Program-made: the position numbers and the translations under genes
Notes under the pieces: generated by a model
Database searches by the model: none
Told to the model about the DNA's origin: nothing
Seen by the model: the letters and a program-made list of their open reading frames with translations, nothing else
Shown here: positions 10,904 to 21,630 of the stretch, in pieces
How the letters are laid out: each line of letters begins with the position of its first letter
Position numbering within the stretch: the stretch's first letter is position 1
NCBI GenBank assembly: GCA_937924755.1
Contig: CALEVZ010000013.1
Span: 62,001-126,000 of the forward strand
Origin: an uncultured bacterium
GTDB lineage: Bacteria > Acidobacteriota > Thermoanaerobaculia > Thermoanaerobaculales > Thermoanaerobaculaceae
Direction: 5' to 3'
DNA: 64,000 bases

Positions 10904-11626
10904 TCACCCGCGCGGCATCGGCAACAGTGCGCCCCCCGACACCGGCAGATCGACGCCCGTGAGGTGGCGCTGCCGCTCGTCGGCGAGAAAGACCACCGCC
11001 GACGCCACATCTTCGGGTTCGGCGACGCGCCGCAGGGGGATGGCCGAGGTGATCCTCTCCAAGCGGCCGGGCTGGGCGAAGGTCTCGGCCGCCATGGGCG
11101 TCCGCACCCAGCCGGGGGAGACCAGGTTCACCCGGACGGTGGGCGCCAGCTCCTGAGCCAGCGACTGCACTAGCCCCCACAGCGCCGCTTTGGAGCCGGC
11201 GTAGTGGCTGTGGCCCGGCTCCCCCCGCTGACCCGCCGTGGAGCCAATGAAGACCAGCGAGCCGGCGGTCATTCTTTTCGCCGCCTCCCGGGCCAAATAG
11301 TAGGCTGAAAAAGTATTGACCCGAAAGATCTCCTCCAGGGTTTGCCGGCTCAGCCCACGGATCGGCCCGTCGTTCCAGATGCCCGCCGAGTGCACCAGCA
11401 CATCCAGATCTCCGGCGGCCTCCAGCAACCGCACGCACCCCTCCTCCTCGCCCAACTCCGCCCGCACCCCCACCACCCGTTCCGCACCAAACTCCGCCGC
11501 CAGGCCCTGCACTGCACCGGCATTGGTGCGACAGTGGGCCACCACCGCGTCACCCATCTGCAGAAACGCTCGGGCGCAGGCCAGCCCGATCCCACTGGAT
11601 GCCCCCGTGACCACCACTCGCCTCAT
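10904..11626 (-). CDS. Short-chain dehydrogenase/reductase
   Basis: A 240-residue NAD(P)-dependent oxidoreductase of the classical SDR family. It has cofactor motif TGASSGIG (7-14), HSAG at 79-82 in place of the usual NNAG, Ser 129, and the catalytic pair Tyr142/Lys146 in HYAGSK. SPGWVRTPM follows. The fold resembles 3-oxoacyl reductases, but the substrate cannot be read from sequence. The ATG at 11626 overlaps the stop of the prenyltransferase-like gene (ATGA) and has AAGGAGG upstream, so the two proteins are probably made together. Confidence 0.92.
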   Translation of the reverse strand: MRRVVVTGASSGIGLACARAFLQMGDAVVAHCRTNAGAVQGLAAEFGAERVVGVRAELGEEEGCVRLLEAAGDLDVLVHSAGIWNDGPIRGLSRQTLEEIFRVNTFSAYYLAREAAKRMTAGSLVFIGSTAGQRGEPGHSHYAGSKAALWGLVQSLAQELAPTVRVNLVSPGWVRTPMAAETFAQPGRLERITSAIPLRRVAEPEDVASAVVFLADERQRHLTGVDLPVSGGALLPMPRG

Positions 11627-12579
11627 GGCCTGTCCTCCTTCTTCACCCCCAGCGATTCGCCGCAGGCCGCCACCGCCACCAGCGCCTGCAGCGTCAGCCA
11701 GCGCGACGGTGCACCCACCTTCTCACCGAGCGGGGCGGCTCGCTCCACCCGCCAGTGGCCGCCCTCATCCTGCCTTGTCAGAACAACCTCCAGGACCTGC
11801 AGCACCGCTGGCGACGCCTGGTGCTGCCAGCGCGCCACGGTGGCCAGCGCCTCCAGCAGATCCGACTGCCCCAGACAGGGGTAGCCAAACCGGCGCCATC
11901 CCGGTGGAGCCGGTCCCTCTATCAGTAAACCTCTTGACTCCAGCCAGTTCGTGGCGCGCTCGGCGAGCGGGGCGAGCCGCCGACGATCGCTGTCACCAGC
12001 TTCCACCACGGTCTTCAAGACCCACACCGCCGCGTGGGGGCACTCCCCTCCCACCAAATGGCGCAAATCAGGGCACGACCAGCCGCCCTCGCCCTCCCGG
12101 GCCCAAAGCCAGGCCACCGCCTCCTGCACCCGCGGGTGGCGCCCGAAGCCGCAGCGCATCATTGCCGCGCACACTGCGGCGGTCAGGCACGCCGACCGCT
12201 GCGTGTCCCGGGCGGGGGAGAAACCGCCACTGGAGGGAGACAAAACCGCCAGGAGGGCCGACGCTGCGCGTTCGACCCTCGGGTCGTGGGGGTCAGCGCC
12301 CAGCCAGGTGGCGGCCAGAAACCGCCACAGGCTCCCGCCCCACCGGTGTCCCACCCCACCCGGTGAGCCCCACAATCCCATCGCACCCTGCTGGCGCAGG
12401 ATTTCCGCCGCCGGGCCGGATTCGCGGGCGGCGGCGCGGGCCCGCTCCACCGCCGGCGAATCGGGGCCGCGGCCAAGGAGTTCCACCAGCGCCCGCCACT
12501 CCACGCCCGGGTCCTCGCCGTCGAAGAGGAACCGCGTGGGGTCCCCGCGCAGGTGGCGCCACCAGGTTGCCTCGGCCAC
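11623..12579 (-). CDS. Prenyltransferase/squalene-cyclase-like alpha/alpha-barrel protein
   Basis: A 318-residue soluble protein with repeated short helices of the squalene-hopene cyclase/prenyltransferase alpha-alpha toroid type. Blocks of the form DPRVERAASALLAVLSPSSGGF, AWLWAREGEGGWS and VVLTRQDEGGHWRVE recur, each with the G-G-W/F turn. The catalytic DxDD of true cyclases is not seen, so a role in terpene synthesis is not supported; such proteins are widespread and mostly uncharacterised. The start is GTG at 12579, 4 bases after the stop of the small upstream gene. It overlaps the SDR start downstream. Confidence 0.75.
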   Translation of the reverse strand: MAEATWWRHLRGDPTRFLFDGEDPGVEWRALVELLGRGPDSPAVERARAAARESGPAAEILRQQGAMGLWGSPGGVGHRWGGSLWRFLAATWLGADPHDPRVERAASALLAVLSPSSGGFSPARDTQRSACLTAAVCAAMMRCGFGRHPRVQEAVAWLWAREGEGGWSCPDLRHLVGGECPHAAVWVLKTVVEAGDSDRRRLAPLAERATNWLESRGLLIEGPAPPGWRRFGYPCLGQSDLLEALATVARWQHQASPAVLQVLEVVLTRQDEGGHWRVERAAPLGEKVGAPSRWLTLQALVAVAACGESLGVKKEDRP

Positions 12580-12583
12580 TGCC

Positions 12584-12853
12584 TCAACCGCCCCGACGCC
12601 CGCGAAACGCCTGAATTTGCTGCAAAGCCCCGGTTACCCGCGAGATCTTGCGGTTGCGTCCCTGCAGGGCGGCCAGCTCCTCCTGGGGAATCACCAGCGC
12701 GCGCAGATCCCGAAGAATCTTCTCGAGCTCAAAGCGCAGCTGCTCGATCTCGCTCTCCGACAGGCGGCGCAGCTGTACGCTGCTCAGGGTCGTGAAGCCG
12801 CCTGCCACCTGTTCCGCGTACGCCAGGGCCGATCCTCCGAGAAACGGGCTCAT
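12584..12853 (-). CDS. Small conserved-looking protein of unknown function
   Basis: An 89-residue protein without recognisable family. After a glycine-rich N-terminus (MSPFLGGSALAY) it is mostly amphipathic helix rich in Leu, Glu and Arg, between residues 30 and 75, and could form a short coiled coil. The ATG at 12853 has GGAGG five bases upstream, which decides it over an open upstream extension. It is the first gene of a three-gene unit with the prenyltransferase-like protein and the SDR. Confidence 0.7.
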   Translation of the reverse strand: MSPFLGGSALAYAEQVAGGFTTLSSVQLRRLSESEIEQLRFELEKILRDLRALVIPQEELAALQGRNRKISRVTGALQQIQAFRGRRGG

Positions 12854-12915
12854 GGTGCCTCCGAATGCACCTCTGATTGTGCCACAGCGCACGTGACGCG
12901 CCCCCTGACGGCGCG

Positions 12916-12939
12916 CCGTGACCGTGCCCGTGTCCGTGC
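12916..12939 (+). repeat. CCGTGN hexamer tract, left of the secreted-protein island
   Basis: Four perfect-register hexamers: CCGTGA, CCGTGC, CCGTGT, CCGTGC. A strong hairpin (GCGGGCC-TGT-GGCCCGC) follows at 12951-12967. Similar degenerate tracts lie on the other side of the two-gene island. Confidence 0.7.
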
Positions 12940-12950
12940 CCCCTTCGTGC

Positions 12951-12967
12951 GCGGGCCTGTGGCCCGC
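12951..12967. repeat. Perfect 7-bp inverted repeat
   Basis: GCGGGCC and GGCCCGC separated by TGT, a very stable hairpin in the gap between the small gene (ATG at 12853) and the 442-residue gene (stop at 13127). No T-run follows on either strand, so it is not a classical terminator. Confidence 0.5.
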
Positions 12968-13043
12968 ACCTCCCCGTGGGGCGGGCGCCCCCCCTCTCCT
13001 TGTCGGTGGCAGGGCCCGGATCCTAAAGCCCTAGGAGGATCAC

Positions 13044-13065
13044 CTTTCTCGAAAGCGTGAGAAAG
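13044..13065. repeat. Inverted repeat downstream of the 442-residue secreted protein gene
   Basis: CTTTCTC and GAGAAAG arms of 7 bp around an 8-base loop. It lies about 60 bases past the stop codon on the minus strand. It has no U-tract and could stabilise the transcript end. Confidence 0.35.
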
Positions 13066-13126
13066 TTGAACGGAAGTTTACAGGGGCGAGCGAGAAGCCC
13101 CCGGCCCACCGCGCTCCTTCGCTTTT

Positions 13127-14455
13127 TTAATGCAGCCGACCGATCCCCCTTATCCAGGCATTCTTTTTGTGGCGGATCCCTGTCCACACCTCGCCCGGAC
13201 GGTAGGCGAAGATGGGTCCATTCTGAGGTCGCCATTTCTCCATGGCGCCCGACGTCTGAAACCAGCTTTCCGCCACCTTGCCGCGCGCAAACCTTAAGCC
13301 CATCAGGGCGATTTCCCCGCCGGCCATCTCCCCCGGCGCAATTTCCCGCCCTTCCAACTTCTGGTACTCCAGGGCTTGGGTGGGATTCTCCACCAGCCAC
13401 TGGGCGAAGGTCTTCGGCAGGTGAACCTCGAAGGCGGCGAAGAAGCCGTCCTCGTCCACCGCCTCGAGCCCCAACAGATACAGGCGCGTGGCCCCTCCCG
13501 GCAGGGCCGGCAGGTCCTCCTTCTTCACCGCCACGAAGCTGCCTTTGCCCCCCTCCGGCCAGTCCGTGACCCACAGCCCCATCGGCGAGCGCACCGCCGC
13601 CGCCGCCCGGCGGCCGCGCACCGCCACGTCGTACTGGAACGAGGTGGGCAAGGTGTACAGGGGCAAAGCGAAGCCGCGCAGTTGCTCGTGCTCCATTTCC
13701 TCCTCGCGCGTCGTCGGCTCCCGCTCCAGAGGCAGGATGCGCACCTTGCGCAGCTCCTTCCCGGGGCTTTTCACCGACGCCATCTCCTCGTCCTTCACCC
13801 CGGCGGCCGCCATCGCCGCGCGCAACCCCTCCAGCGGCAGCCGATGCTCCACCAGCTGCCGCCGCTCCAGGTCGAAGCGATGGATCAGGTGATCCTCCCA
13901 CACCCCCACCACCCACACCTCCCCGTCCACCACCCGCAGGTTGTTCATCACGAACGGCAGCTCGTACGTGGCGGTCACCTTCAATTCGTCGCCGAAGCAG
14001 CAAAACTTGGTGGGAAACGCCAGCAGGTAGGGACACTTCACCCCTTCCTCCCCACCCTCCCCCTCTCCCTCCTCCTCCCCCCGCACCAGCACCTTGGGAA
14101 ACGTCCTCGGCGTGAAGCGTTGCTCGATCCTCGTCAAGTCGCCGGCTTTGGGGACCATATCCGGCTCCCTGACAAAAAAGCGCTCGCCCCACTCACGCAC
14201 CGACCAGGTGGAGCTCAACCAGGCAAGGGCGAAGTAGACGGAATCCCCGTGCTCGGCCCGCAGGCGCCTTTGTTCTTTTTCGTCGGCGGTCATCACCTGC
14301 AGCACCGCGAGGTTCTGCCGCCCCACGGCCACCGCCCCGTACACGATGTACAGCCGCGGCTTCGAACCCGCGCCCGGGGCGAAAACGTCCTTGAACTGCC
14401 ACTCGCCCGCCGTGGCAGTGGCAGCCAGCAGCACCAAACCGAAGCGCTTCAGCAT
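13127..14455 (-). CDS. Unknown secreted protein, possibly beta-propeller-like
   Basis: A 442-residue protein that I do not recognise as a named family. It starts with a short signal-like sequence (MLKRFGLVLLAATATAGEW), so it is probably exported. The middle contains strand-rich blocks such as VDGEVWVVGVWEDHLIHRFD and RSPMGLWVTDWPEGG that look like six-bladed propeller units; this is pattern inference only. An acidic low-complexity run of Glu and Gly lies near residue 130, followed by a three-cysteine patch (C..CC). The ATG at 14455 has GAGGAGA upstream. It follows the cysteine-rich peptide gene by 22 bases. Confidence 0.75.
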   Translation of the reverse strand: MLKRFGLVLLAATATAGEWQFKDVFAPGAGSKPRLYIVYGAVAVGRQNLAVLQVMTADEKEQRRLRAEHGDSVYFALAWLSSTWSVREWGERFFVREPDMVPKAGDLTRIEQRFTPRTFPKVLVRGEEEGEGEGGEEGVKCPYLLAFPTKFCCFGDELKVTATYELPFVMNNLRVVDGEVWVVGVWEDHLIHRFDLERRQLVEHRLPLEGLRAAMAAAGVKDEEMASVKSPGKELRKVRILPLEREPTTREEEMEHEQLRGFALPLYTLPTSFQYDVAVRGRRAAAAVRSPMGLWVTDWPEGGKGSFVAVKKEDLPALPGGATRLYLLGLEAVDEDGFFAAFEVHLPKTFAQWLVENPTQALEYQKLEGREIAPGEMAGGEIALMGLRFARGKVAESWFQTSGAMEKWRPQNGPIFAYRPGEVWTGIRHKKNAWIRGIGRLH

Positions 14456-14477
14456 CGGCCGATCTCCTCTACGGTCT

Positions 14478-14801
14478 TCATTGGATGATGATGTAACACC
14501 TCTCGGACCAACAGGTGCCGCCATAGACGAAGCAGTGCCAACCCCCCACTGGCCTGCACAGCGGCTGCCCATCGGGTCCTGCTTGGCACGCCATCTGGTT
14601 GCACCAGGGGCTCGCGGGCTCGACCCGCCTTTCCCGCGGCACCACCTCGAATCCCACCCCGAGCTCCGTGCCCGCCACCGCGCGCTGCCGCTGCAGGGAA
14701 ACCACCTCCCCCACCTCGGCCTGGCACCGCGCCTCCTCCTCTCCCCAGACCAGACCCTGCGACGACAACATCACCAGCACCCCCAAGACAAGCGCGCTCA
14801 T
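14478..14801 (-). CDS. Small secreted cysteine-rich protein
   Basis: A 107-residue protein with an N-terminal hydrophobic signal (residues 1-20, ending VWG). The mature part has an acidic start and a C-terminal cysteine-rich segment: Cys at 26, 67, 72, 82, 90, 97 and 102, so six lie within 36 residues, suggesting disulfides or processing. It ends CYIIIQ. I know no family for it. The start is uncertain: GGCGGAG lies rather far upstream, and an in-frame basic stretch (KKRLV) precedes the ATG. It is first in a two-gene unit with the larger secreted protein. NVEALA-type peptides of Bacteroidetes, which precede six-bladed propeller lipoproteins, are an analogy, not a proven relation. Confidence 0.65.
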   Translation of the reverse strand: MSALVLGVLVMLSSQGLVWGEEEARCQAEVGEVVSLQRQRAVAGTELGVGFEVVPRERRVEPASPWCNQMACQAGPDGQPLCRPVGGWHCFVYGGTCWSERCYIIIQ

Positions 14802-14966
14802 GACCAGCCGTTTTTTCTCCGCCCTCTCGCGGCCCCTTCGAGCCAGAGGATAAAAAAAAACGACCTGTCAAGCGGAGGGTGAACACCCGAAAACGGCAAC
14901 GGCACCGTGCCATGGTCAGCACGCCGCCCGCCCCCGATCCCGCACTGCCCGCGCCGCGGACCATGC

Positions 14967-14990
14967 CCGTGACCGGGTCCGTGTCCGCAA
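14967..14990 (+). repeat. Degenerate CCGTGN hexamer tract, right of the island
   Basis: Four hexamers in register: CCGTGA, CCGGGT, CCGTGT, CCGCAA. Related to the perfect tract at 12916-12939. Confidence 0.55.
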
Positions 14991-15058
14991 CTGGGTGCGC
15001 ACGCCTCCGGCCCCCTCACGGTCGGCACGGTCTGCCACGGCCGAAACGGAGCTCCGGT

Positions 15059-15082
15059 CCGTATTCGTGACCTTGACCGCGG
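15059..15082 (+). repeat. More degenerate hexamer tract before glk
   Basis: CCGTAT, TCGTGA, CCTTGA, CCGCGG: a decayed version of the CCGTGN pattern, in the same orientation as the other two tracts. Confidence 0.35.
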
Positions 15083-15102
15083 CCGCGGGGCCGGGGGTGC
15101 GG

Positions 15103-15108
15103 TAGGCT
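15103..15108 (+). promoter_or_regulatory. Candidate leaderless -10 element (TAGGCT) of glk
   Basis: TAGGCT ends 7 bases before the ATG at 15116, and no ribosome-binding site is present. This is the spacing expected if transcription begins at the start codon. Confidence 0.45.
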
Positions 15109-15115
15109 TCGCGCG

Positions 15116-16132
15116 ATGGCGCCTCTGGTACTGGCCGCCGACCTGGGGGGGACTTCGGCGCGGGTGGCGGTGTACACCGCCGCGGACGCGGCCGTGACCC
15201 CGCTGCACACGGTGATCCACCCGGCCAGCGCCCTGCCCGGGGTGGCCACGGTGCTGGAGCTGATCCCCGCCACCCTGCGGGGAGAGGTGGCGGCCGCCTG
15301 CCTGGCGGTGGCGGGGCCGGTGGGGGAGGGGCGGGCGCGTCTGACGAACCTCCCGTGGGAGGTGGAGGCCGCCGCGGTGGCGCGGCAGTTGCGCCTGCCG
15401 ACCGGAAGGGTCGCCCTCGTCAATGACCTGGAGGCCATCGCCTGGGCCATACCCACGTTACCCCCGGCGGCCTTGCACACGTTGCACTCTGGCGTTCCCT
15501 CGTCGGGGAACGTCGCCCTGCTGGCGGCGGGCACCGGCCTGGGGGAGGCGGGGCTGATCTGGGACGGCCGGCGCCACGTCCCCTTCGGCGGAGAGGGGGG
15601 GCACGCCGACTTCGCCCCCCGGGACGAGGTGGAGTGGGAGCTGGCCCGGCAGCTGGCGGCCCGCTACGGCCGCGTGAGCTGGGAGCGGGTGGTGTCGGGG
15701 CCGGGCCTGGTGGAGCTGTACCACTTTTTGCTGCAGTACCGCGGGATGGCGGTCCCCCCGCCGGTGGCCGGGGCGCTGGCGGCGGGGGCCGGGGCGGCGG
15801 CGGTGGCCCAGGCGGCCCGGGAGGGGTCCTGCCCGGTCGCCGTGGAGGCCGTGCGCCGCTTCGTGGGACTGCTGGGGGCGGAGGCGGGCAACCTGGCCCT
15901 CAAGCTCAAGGCCGAGGGGGGGGTGTACCTGGGCGGGGGCATGGCTCCCAAGTTGTTGTCGCAGCTCCAGGACGGCCCCTTCCTGGAGTCGTTCCTCGCC
16001 AAGGGGCGGATGCGCCCCCTGCTGGAGACTTTCCCCGTGCGTGTGATCCTGGACGAGGGGGCGGGGCTGGCCGGGGCAGCCCGGGTGGCGGCGCGGCTGG
16101 CGGGGGCCCCGGGCCAAGCGGATGGGCCATAA
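15116..16132 (+). CDS. glk: Glucokinase
   Basis: Phosphorylates glucose to glucose-6-phosphate with ATP. The 338-residue protein is of the proteobacterial Glk type. It has phosphate-binding ADLGGTSARVAVY near the N-terminus, LAVAGPV, the LVNDLEAIAW sugar-binding block with its aspartate, LAAGTGLGEA, FGGEGGHADFAPRDEVE and ERVVSGPGLVELY. It heads a run with rpe, followed further on by tal-pgi, consistent with upper sugar metabolism. There is no ribosome site before the ATG; a TAGGCT hexamer 7 bases upstream suggests a leaderless message. Confidence 0.93.
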   Translation: MAPLVLAADLGGTSARVAVYTAADAAVTPLHTVIHPASALPGVATVLELIPATLRGEVAAACLAVAGPVGEGRARLTNLPWEVEAAAVARQLRLPTGRVALVNDLEAIAWAIPTLPPAALHTLHSGVPSSGNVALLAAGTGLGEAGLIWDGRRHVPFGGEGGHADFAPRDEVEWELARQLAARYGRVSWERVVSGPGLVELYHFLLQYRGMAVPPPVAGALAAGAGAAAVAQAAREGSCPVAVEAVRRFVGLLGAEAGNLALKLKAEGGVYLGGGMAPKLLSQLQDGPFLESFLAKGRMRPLLETFPVRVILDEGAGLAGAARVAARLAGAPGQADGP

Positions 16133-16154
16133 TGCCCGCCGGGGGGAGCCGCCC

Positions 16155-16832
16155 GTGATCGCCATCGCCCCGTCACTGCTGGCCGCGGACTTCCTGCGCC
16201 TGGGGGAGGAGGTGCGCGCCGCCGAGGCCGCCGGCGCCGACCGGCTGCACCTGGACATCATGGACGGCCGTTTCGTCCCCAACATCAGCTTCGGTCCGGA
16301 GGTGGTGGCGGCGGTGCGGCGGGCCACCGCCCTGCCCCTGGAGGCCCACCTCATGATCGAAGAGCCGGACCGCTACGTGCAGGCCTTCGTGGAGGCCGGA
16401 GCCACCACCGTGCAGGTGCACGTGGAAAACACCCCCCACCTGCACCGCACCGTGGAGCTTATCAAGGGGCTGGGAGCCCGCGCCGGGGTGGTGCTCAACC
16501 CCGCCACCCCCGCCGAGGCGGCCGGCGAGATCCTGCTCGAGGTGGACATGGTGCTGGCCATGACCGTCAACCCCGGCTACGGGGGGCAGCGTTTCATCAC
16601 TGCCACCCTGGGCAAGATCCGCCGCCTGGCGACGCTCATCGCCGCCCACCACCCGGCCTGCGAGCTGGAGGTGGACGGGGGGATCGACCCCGACACGGCG
16701 CCCCTGGCGGTGGCCGCAGGGGCGAGGGTGCTGGTGGCGGGCACATCCGTGTTTCGCGCCCCGGGGGGAATTGCCGCGGGCCTGGCGGCGCTTGCTCGGG
16801 CAGCGGGGCGGGCCGCCGACCCGGCACCGTGA
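16155..16832 (+). CDS. rpe: Ribulose-phosphate 3-epimerase
   Basis: Interconverts ribulose-5-phosphate and xylulose-5-phosphate in the pentose phosphate pathway. The 225-residue TIM barrel opens IAIAPSLLAADF and has HLDIMDGRFVPNISFGP with the metal-binding His and Asp, EAHLMIE, MTVNPGYGGQRF and LEVDGGID. The GTG at 16155 is chosen because GGGGGGAG lies 6 bases upstream and it gives the standard family N-terminus. It follows glk by 22 bases and is co-directional with tal-pgi. Confidence 0.95.
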   Translation: MIAIAPSLLAADFLRLGEEVRAAEAAGADRLHLDIMDGRFVPNISFGPEVVAAVRRATALPLEAHLMIEEPDRYVQAFVEAGATTVQVHVENTPHLHRTVELIKGLGARAGVVLNPATPAEAAGEILLEVDMVLAMTVNPGYGGQRFITATLGKIRRLATLIAAHHPACELEVDGGIDPDTAPLAVAAGARVLVAGTSVFRAPGGIAAGLAALARAAGRAADPAP

Positions 16833-16842
16833 GGGAGAGGCG

Positions 16843-18849: not shown

Positions 18850-21630
18850 ATGAACCCTCTGCTGCAACTCATCGAGCACGGACAGAGCGTATGGCTGGAC
18901 AACCTCACGCGCCGCATGCTCACCAGCGGTCAGCTGGAGCGGCGCGTGCACCAAGAGGGTGTGCGCGGGGTCACCTCCAACCCCGCCATCTTTCACGCGT
19001 CGATTTCGCGCGGGGGCGAGTACGACGAGGATATCGCTCTGCTGGCCCGCGCCGGAGCTTCGGTGCAGGAGATCTACGAGCGGTTGGTGGTGCACGACAT
19101 CCAGGCGGCGTGCGACGTCCTGCGCCCCCTGTACGACGCCACCGGCGGCGGCGACGGCTTCGTCAGCCTCGAAGTGTCGCCCTACCTCATCCACGACGCC
19201 GAGGGCACCCTGCTCGAGGCTCGCCGCCTGCACACCGCGGTACAGCGCCCCAACCTCCTGATCAAGATCCCCGGCAGCCCCGCCGGCGTGCGCGCCGTCG
19301 AGGACGCCCTCGCCGAGGGGATCAACGTCAACATCACTCTGCTCTTTGCGGTGGACGCCTACGAGGCGGTCGCCGCGGCGTACCTGCGCGCCCTCGAGCG
19401 GCGCCTGGCGCAGGGGCTGCCCCTGGATTCCATCGCCTCGGTGGCCAGCTTCTTCGTCAGCCGCATAGACACCCTGGTGGACCAGCTGCTGGGACACCGC
19501 CTGGCGGTGCCGGGGGCAGGGCCCCGGGCCGCCGCCCTGCTGGGGCAGGCCGCCATCGCCAACGCCCGCCTGGCCTACGCCTCGTTCCAGCGCCTCTTCT
19601 CGGGCCCCCGCTGGGAGGCTTTGGCCGCCCGGGGGGCGCGGGTGCAGCGGCTGCTGTGGGCCTCCACCTCCACCAAGGATCCCCTGTACGACGACGTGCG
19701 CTACGTGGCGCCGTTGGTCGGCCCGCACACCGTCAACACCATGCCGGAGGAGACCATCGCTGCCTTTGCCGACCACGGCAACCTGGATGGCCCGGGAGTG
19801 GCCGCCGGCGTGGAGGAGGCGCAGGCCGTCCTGGCCCGGCTGGGCGAGCTGGGGATCGATGTCCGCGCCGTCACCACCCAGCTGCTGAACGAGGGGGCGC
19901 AGAAGTTCATGGAGCCCTTCGACGCTTTGATGGCCTCCATCGCGGCGCGCCGGCAGACGGCCCTGGGACTGCCGGCGGGGGAGATGTCCCCCTCCCCCGC
20001 GGCGGCGGGCGGAGCCGCGGCCGAGGTCGGCAGGTCCCTGGACGCCCGCCAGTTCGGCCGCCGTTTGTGGGCCAGGGACGCCTCTCTGTGGAGCCCCGAC
20101 GAGCAGGTGCAGCTCGCCATTCGCCAGCGCCTGGGCTGGCTTCACGCCGCCGCAGAGTTTGCCCCGCGCCTCAGCGAGGTGCAGCGCCTGGCCGACGAGG
20201 TGGTGGCGCAAGGGTACCGGCACGTGGTGCTGCTGGGGATGGGGGGGTCCAGCCTCTGCCCTGAGGTGTGCGCCCGTATCTTCGGACCGGCCCCCGGCCA
20301 CCCCGACCTGGTTGTCCTGGACTCCACCGACCCCGACGCTGTGCGCGCGGTGGAGAACCGGCTGGAGCTGGGACGCACCCTTTTCCTGGTCGCCTCCAAG
20401 TCCGGCACCACCGTGGAAACCGCCTGCCTGCAGAAGTACTTCTGGGGCAAAGCGGTAGATACGCTGGGGGAGGCGGAGGCGGGCCGGCACTTTCTGGCCA
20501 TTACCGACCCGGGCACCCCCCTGGTCGCCGAGGGGCGCAAGCTGGGGTACCGGGCGGTGCTGGAGAACCCCGCCGACATCGGCGGGCGTTTCTCCGCCCT
20601 GTCCTACTTCGGGCTGCTGCCCATGGCCCTGCTGGGCATCGACACGGGCGAAGGGCTGGTGCGGGCCCGCCGCATGGCCCTCTCCTGCGGCGGCGAGGTG
20701 CCGGCGACGGCCAACCCGGGGGTGCGGTTGGGGGCGGTGCTGGGCGGTCATGCCCTGCGTGGTCGCAACGTCCTGGCCCTGGCGCTCTCCCCTGCCCTGG
20801 CCCCCTTCGCCGCCTGGGTGGAGCAGCTGGTGGCCGAGAGCACCGGCAAGCAGGGCAAGGGGATCTTGCCCACCGTCGGGCTCCCCGAGCCAGGAGCCGT
20901 GGCGTTCCGCTCCGTGACGGTGGCCATGGCTCTGCGAGGCGAGGAGGACGCGGAGATGGCCCGCCGGCTGGAGGCTCTGGCCGCGGCGGGCCACCCAGTG
21001 GTGCGGCTAGAGCTGGCCGACCGCCTGGAGCTGGCGGCGGAGTTCCTGCGCTGGGAGATCGCCACCGCCACCGCCGGGGCGGTGCTGGGGGTCAACCCCT
21101 TCGACGAACCCAACGTCAACGAGAGCAAGGCCCTCACCCGCTCGCTGCTGGCCCGAGGGGAGCCCCAAAAGCCCGCCGCGGCGGCGGTCGGGGCCCTCCA
21201 GTTCTTTGGGCCCCAGGTGGGGCGGCAGGACGCTCCCCTGGCCGGGCTCTTCTCCCCCACCCCGGTCTACCTGGGGCTGCTGGCATTTTTCGCTCCCACC
21301 CCCGAGCGGGAGGAGACCCTAAAGCGGCTGCGCCGGCAGCTGGCCGAACACCTGGGGGTGCCGGTGACGGCCGGCTTCGGGCCCCGCTACCTGCACTCCA
21401 CCGGGCAGCTGCACAAGGGGGGCTTTCCCGGCGGGGCCTACCTGGTGCTCACCGCCGACCCGCAGGAAACGCTGGCCATCCCCGGGGAGCCCTTCGACTT
21501 CACCCGGCTCCTCCACGCCCAGGCGGAGGGAGACTTCCAGGCCCTGCTGGCGCGCGGCCGGCGGGCGGTGCGGGTGCACCTGGGAGGCGACCCTCTGGCG
21601 GGCCTGAAGGAGTTGGAGACCTTGGTGTGA
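18850..21630 (+). CDS. tal-pgi: Bifunctional transaldolase / glucose-6-phosphate isomerase
   Basis: A 926-residue fusion joining the pentose phosphate pathway to glycolysis. Residues 1 to about 375 are transaldolase: SNPAIFHASI, EVSPYL, the Schiff-base lysine in NLLIKIPGS (Lys139), GINVNITLLF and ASTSTKDP. After a short Ala/Gly linker near 385-395 the rest is phosphoglucose isomerase, with LGMGGSSLCPEV near 461, ASKSGTTVET near 516 and KQGKGILPTVG. Fusions of this arrangement are known in several phyla. The ATG at 18850 has GGAGG upstream. A TGCTAGCAT extended -10-like sequence at 18802-18810 may serve it. glk and rpe lie just upstream. Confidence 0.95.
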   Translation: MNPLLQLIEHGQSVWLDNLTRRMLTSGQLERRVHQEGVRGVTSNPAIFHASISRGGEYDEDIALLARAGASVQEIYERLVVHDIQAACDVLRPLYDATGGGDGFVSLEVSPYLIHDAEGTLLEARRLHTAVQRPNLLIKIPGSPAGVRAVEDALAEGINVNITLLFAVDAYEAVAAAYLRALERRLAQGLPLDSIASVASFFVSRIDTLVDQLLGHRLAVPGAGPRAAALLGQAAIANARLAYASFQRLFSGPRWEALAARGARVQRLLWASTSTKDPLYDDVRYVAPLVGPHTVNTMPEETIAAFADHGNLDGPGVAAGVEEAQAVLARLGELGIDVRAVTTQLLNEGAQKFMEPFDALMASIAARRQTALGLPAGEMSPSPAAAGGAAAEVGRSLDARQFGRRLWARDASLWSPDEQVQLAIRQRLGWLHAAAEFAPRLSEVQRLADEVVAQGYRHVVLLGMGGSSLCPEVCARIFGPAPGHPDLVVLDSTDPDAVRAVENRLELGRTLFLVASKSGTTVETACLQKYFWGKAVDTLGEAEAGRHFLAITDPGTPLVAEGRKLGYRAVLENPADIGGRFSALSYFGLLPMALLGIDTGEGLVRARRMALSCGGEVPATANPGVRLGAVLGGHALRGRNVLALALSPALAPFAAWVEQLVAESTGKQGKGILPTVGLPEPGAVAFRSVTVAMALRGEEDAEMARRLEALAAAGHPVVRLELADRLELAAEFLRWEIATATAGAVLGVNPFDEPNVNESKALTRSLLARGEPQKPAAAAVGALQFFGPQVGRQDAPLAGLFSPTPVYLGLLAFFAPTPEREETLKRLRRQLAEHLGVPVTAGFGPRYLHSTGQLHKGGFPGGAYLVLTADPQETLAIPGEPFDFTRLLHAQAEGDFQALLARGRRAVRVHLGGDPLAGLKELETLV

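What the first reader, a model, noticed from the sequence alone, without database searches (positions are those of the whole stretch)
13127..14801. Secreted seven-cysteine peptide paired with a large secreted partner
The 107-residue precursor has a signal peptide and six cysteines in its last 36 residues. It is followed 22 bases later by a 442-residue secreted protein with strand blocks resembling propeller units. I recognise neither as a family. The arrangement parallels Bacteroidetes loci in which a small NVEALA-type peptide precedes a six-bladed propeller lipoprotein, but in a different phylum and without clear homology. The pair could be a secreted signal, toxin or structural peptide with its partner. 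It is bounded by hexamer tracts.
Basis: partly seen in the sequence, partly recalled or inferred. Interest (0 to 1): 0.72.

Follow-up and report, generated by a model that had tools for sequence, protein, structure and literature searches.

The report
Orphan secreted two-gene pair
Two neighbouring bacterial genes, one for a small cysteine-rich exported protein and one for a larger exported protein, are probably real but were found in no other genome we could search, so their job is unknown and, on present evidence, they look like ordinary lineage-specific genes.

Summary
Codon statistics support the large gene and the peptide's first 59 codons, but only weakly the Cys-rich 48 codons. Neither protein matches Pfam, NCBIfam, PHROGs, PADLOC or PDB sequences. 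No credible relative was found in 60 relatives, 396 genomes of the phylum, viral contigs, phages or plasmids, nor (large protein only) in an 84,980-genome scan. The NVEALA/propeller analogy found no support: no family match, no lipobox, no internal repeats. Single-sequence structure predictions failed (pLDDT 31 and 51). New context: in 12 of 13 same-family genomes examined, the genes flanking the site are 92-199 bp apart; here a 3.95-kb block holding the pair plus glucokinase and ribulose-phosphate epimerase sits between them. The bordering hexamer tracts occur all over this genome and say nothing about the pair. Best reading: a lineage-specific operon of two exported proteins acting together, the small one disulfide-stabilised. 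Function is inferred, confidence low; most likely an ordinary ORFan pair.

The parts
14478..14801 (-). 107-residue small exported protein, Cys 26/67/72/82/90/97/102; six-Cys module in residues 67-102 (spacing C-x4-C-x9-C-x7-C-x6-C-x4-C)
   Evidence: coding signal good in codons 1-59, weak in 60-107; no credible homologue found
13127..14455 (-). 442-residue exported protein, signal MLKRFGLVLLAATATA, Cys 141/152/153, acidic low-complexity stretch at about residues 125-138
   Evidence: orphan
14456..14477 (-). 22-base intergenic spacer with GAGGAG ribosome site eight bases before the large gene's ATG
12893..16842 (.). 3.95-kb block (large gene, small gene, glucokinase, ribulose-phosphate epimerase) absent between the same flanking genes in 12 of 13 same-family genomes examined
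15116..16132 (+). glucokinase (PF02685), divergently oriented neighbour inside the block
12584..12892 (-). 102-residue conserved gene of unknown family that flanks the block on the left
   Evidence: 51-62% identical homologues in 13 same-family genomes; no Pfam match
12916..12941 (.). degenerate GTGNCC hexamer tract, dispersed genome-wide
14963..14986 (.). second degenerate GTGNCC hexamer tract

Best explanation
A lineage-specific two-gene operon encodes two exported proteins that act together in the periplasm or outside the cell. Shown: tandem order on one strand with 22 bases between, a strong ribosome site for the second gene, a Sec-type signal on the large protein, no lipobox and no second hydrophobic segment of membrane-anchor strength in either protein, and absence of the block from the same site in related genomes. 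Inferred: both genes are on one transcript; the small protein is exported by Sec and its six clustered cysteines form three disulfides in the oxidising periplasm, giving a compact module of about 5 kDa behind a linker of about 40 residues; the 48-kDa protein is its carrier or binding partner. Both proteins have an odd number of cysteines (7 and 3), so one disulfide joining them is possible but wholly untested.
For: ORF positions, spacing and ribosome site; codon periodicity of the large gene and of the first half of the small one; signal-like N-termini and no other strong hydrophobic segment; host-like codon use in the large gene, which argues for an established gene rather than a very recent import; insertion seen against syntenic relatives.
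Against: No homologue of either protein, hence no conserved co-occurrence and no test of selection. Weak codon signal over the Cys-rich half and a poor start site for the small gene. No promoter or terminator found by consensus scan, so the shared transcript is inferred. Structure predictions are unusable (pLDDT 31 and 51).
Confidence: 0.35

Rival explanations
1. Two functionally unrelated ORFan genes that share a lineage-specific insertion; adjacency is incidental and each does something minor or redundant.
For: Both proteins are orphans in the same 3.95-kb block, which also carries glucokinase and an epimerase with no evident link to them. Exported genes of unknown family are common: 23.7% of novel families from uncultivated taxa carry signal peptides in PMC10849945.
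Against: The 22-base spacing and strong internal ribosome site suggest co-expression.
Confidence: 0.28
2. The small ORF is not a functional cysteine-rich peptide: it is a leader ORF, or only its first part matters, and the Cys cluster is a by-product of GC-rich sequence.
For: Codon signal fades in codons 60-107; 17 of 596 open frames in the window have 6 Cys in 36 residues; no well-placed Shine-Dalgarno site and no basic n-region.
Against: The peptide frame is still the best of six over the Cys-rich part; a Cys- and Trp-rich composition itself lowers position-1 GC; about 10% of windows in a conserved neighbour score as low; the frame stops just before the partner's ribosome site.
Confidence: 0.17
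3. A very divergent relative of the NVEALA-type peptide plus six-bladed-propeller arrangement of Bacteroidota.
For: Gene order and a Cys-rich small partner are similar in outline; a blade-like stretch around residues 170-205 was modelled as four strands, at very low confidence.
Against: No NVEALA or propeller model matches; no internal repeats; no lipobox in the large protein.
Confidence: 0.1
4. A secreted antibacterial (bacteriocin-like) peptide with an exported immunity or delivery protein.
For: Small, Cys-rich, probably exported and lineage-specific.
Against: No dedicated transporter or processing protease beside it; no match in the defence or phage libraries; neighbours are central-metabolism genes.
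Confidence: 0.1

Closest known systems
   Same: Small Cys-rich exported product encoded next to a larger exported protein
   Different: No match to either model, no lipobox, no detectable repeats, no conserved recurrence of the pair
Taxonomically restricted (ORFan) genes with signal peptides, as catalogued for uncultivated taxa (PMC10849945)
   Same: No recognisable homologue, signal peptide, lineage-specific; this is the class the pair fits on present evidence
   Different: The families in that catalogue recur across several genomes (general knowledge); here only one genome holds the pair
Inhibitor-cystine-knot-like six-cysteine peptides (from general knowledge)
   Same: Six clustered cysteines with loops 4/9/7/6/4, within the loosest spacing limits as recalled
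   Different: Those limits are so loose that they are not evidence; no sequence match to any solved chain and no reliable model

Membership tests
NVEALA peptide family | match to PF14055 | tested here: not met
   no Pfam match up to E = 10; no match in the own genome
Six-bladed beta-propeller lipoprotein (partner of NVEALA peptides) | match to a propeller family | tested here: not met
   whole protein and fragments, no propeller model; PF17170 matches elsewhere in this genome, not here
Six-bladed beta-propeller lipoprotein (partner of NVEALA peptides) | repeated four-strand blades | tested here: inconclusive
   no internal repeat above shuffles, but blades can diverge beyond this test; model pLDDT 31
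Six-bladed beta-propeller lipoprotein (partner of NVEALA peptides) | lipobox cysteine after the signal | tested here: not met
   first Cys of the large protein is residue 141
ORFan / taxonomically restricted gene | no homologue outside a narrow lineage | tested here: met
   single-sequence queries and first-look filters could miss very distant relatives
Cystine-knot peptide | knotted 1-4, 2-5, 3-6 disulfides | not testable with these tools
   needs disulfide mapping or a structure; single-sequence model pLDDT 51

The most novel reading that the evidence does not exclude
A new family of exported six-cysteine signal or effector peptide that is matched, perhaps covalently through its seventh cysteine, to a new kind of exported carrier protein, confined to one uncultured lineage.
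Probability: 0.07. Interest if true: 0.6.

Novelty: new member of a known kind. Interest (0 to 1): 0.25.

Why it matters
If the pair works together it would be a small unexplored family of secreted, disulfide-rich bacterial proteins with a dedicated partner. As it stands it is one of very many lineage-specific exported gene pairs, useful mainly as a worked case: with no homologues, structure prediction, selection tests and co-occurrence tests all run out, and only more genomes or expression and binding experiments can move it forward.

Tried and rejected
Weak peptide matches in relatives and in the phylum (E 4e-4 to 0.1): the best relative hit lies opposite another gene, and the loci re-read from the phylum search showed alternative or opposite frames of other genes or low-complexity sequence, not a small exported Cys-rich gene. 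Weak partner matches (E 0.05-0.6) are an opposite-strand frame, fragments of unrelated ORFs, the membrane segment of a kinase and a receptor's end (one search read three minus-strand loci on the wrong strand and one search corrects it). Exact Cys-spacing search in 149 class genomes: the 13 other matches proved to be short or off-frame readings, frames broken by a stop, or low-complexity sequence. A cupin match to a fragment (E 0.05) and PHROG 3327 (E 0.72) are at noise level. Structure prediction without an alignment failed, so no fold search was run on those models. A frameshift joining the two ORFs was considered and rejected: the other two minus-strand frames score far lower through codons 60-107. 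Laying out the whole genome was not available. A literature search for NVEALA returned nothing in the open library.

Full report
What is there. On the minus strand, 14801-14478 encodes 107 residues with seven cysteines (26, 67, 72, 82, 90, 97, 102) and, 22 bases on, 14455-13127 encodes 442 residues with three cysteines (141, 152, 153). The large gene has GAGGAG eight bases before its ATG and begins MLKRFGLVLLAATATAGEW, a good Sec-type signal by eye; there is no lipobox. The small protein begins with a hydrophobic stretch without any K or R before it, and its ATG has no well-placed Shine-Dalgarno site; an in-frame KKR lies just upstream but without ATG, GTG or TTG.

Are they genes? The large one is: GC by codon position 0.67/0.45/0.87, like its neighbours, and the best frame of six. 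The small one shows strong periodicity in codons 1-59 (p = 1e-7) and weak periodicity in the Cys-rich codons 60-107 (p = 0.03). The synonymous-codon score there is -0.14 per codon, lower than all 167 right-frame segments of well-known neighbours and reached by 23% of wrong-frame segments, yet the best of the six frames at that place; about 10% of windows of a conserved neighbour are as low. Cys density itself is no proof: 17 of 596 open frames in the window reach six Cys in 36 residues. I take the peptide as probably real.

Relatives. No credible one was found. Pfam, NCBIfam, PHROGs and PADLOC give nothing above noise; PDB sequences nothing. In 60 relatives there is nothing for the large protein and only weak matches for the small one, the best of which lies opposite another gene. 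In 396 genomes of the phylum there is nothing for the large one, and for the Cys-rich part only noise among the loci re-read. Viral contigs, plasmids and phages give nothing, nor does the 84,980-genome scan for the large protein. A search for the exact Cys spacing in 149 genomes of the class found no other believable in-frame example. No second genome of this genus was among the relatives searched. All these searches start from one sequence and use first-look filters, so very distant relatives could be missed.

Place in the genome. The genes at 11623-12579 and 12584-12892 have homologues side by side in 13 same-family genomes; in 12 of these the next gene is the acyl-CoA dehydrogenase, divergent, with 92-199 bases between the aligned ends. 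Here the same two flanks are 3,950 bases apart, and the block between them holds the pair, glucokinase and ribulose-phosphate epimerase. In the six glucokinase loci checked the epimerase was not beside it. The pair is therefore part of a lineage-specific insertion or rearrangement, though whether the block arrived in one step is unknown. The GTGNCC tracts beside it occur throughout the genome (153 matches against 38 for the control) and are not a boundary mark of the pair.

Fold. Without homologues, prediction fails: mean pLDDT 31 and 51. A search for internal repeats scores below shuffled sequence. The propeller reading rests on appearance only.

Mechanism. Most likely an operon of two exported proteins, the small one held by three disulfides, the large one its partner (0.35). 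Rivals: unrelated ORFans in one insertion (0.28), a small ORF whose Cys-rich half is not functional (0.17), a divergent NVEALA/propeller pair (0.10), an antibacterial peptide with a partner (0.10). Odd cysteine counts in both proteins allow a linking disulfide; this is inference only.

Verdict. A partly confirmed observation, an unsupported analogy, and an ordinary explanation: a lineage-specific pair of exported orphan genes. In a large survey of unknown gene families from uncultivated taxa, 23.7% encode signal peptides (PMC10849945), so exported unknowns are not rare.

Noticed in passing
12918-12941, 14963-14986, 15067-15084 and genome-wide: Degenerate GTGNCC hexamer tracts: 153 matches (up to 1 mismatch) in the whole genome against 38 for the reversed control, spread over many contigs; nature unknown.
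   Followed up: partly
11623-12579 and 12584-12892: Two tandem minus-strand genes conserved in synteny across the family (50-62% identity) with no Pfam match.
   Followed up: partly
15116-16832: Glucokinase and ribulose-phosphate epimerase share the block with the pair; the epimerase's best matches in the genome collection are a planctomycete MAG (65%) and Anaerolineae, which may mean horizontal transfer.
   Followed up: no
18850-21630: A 926-residue ORF with transaldolase and phosphoglucose isomerase domains fused.
   Followed up: no
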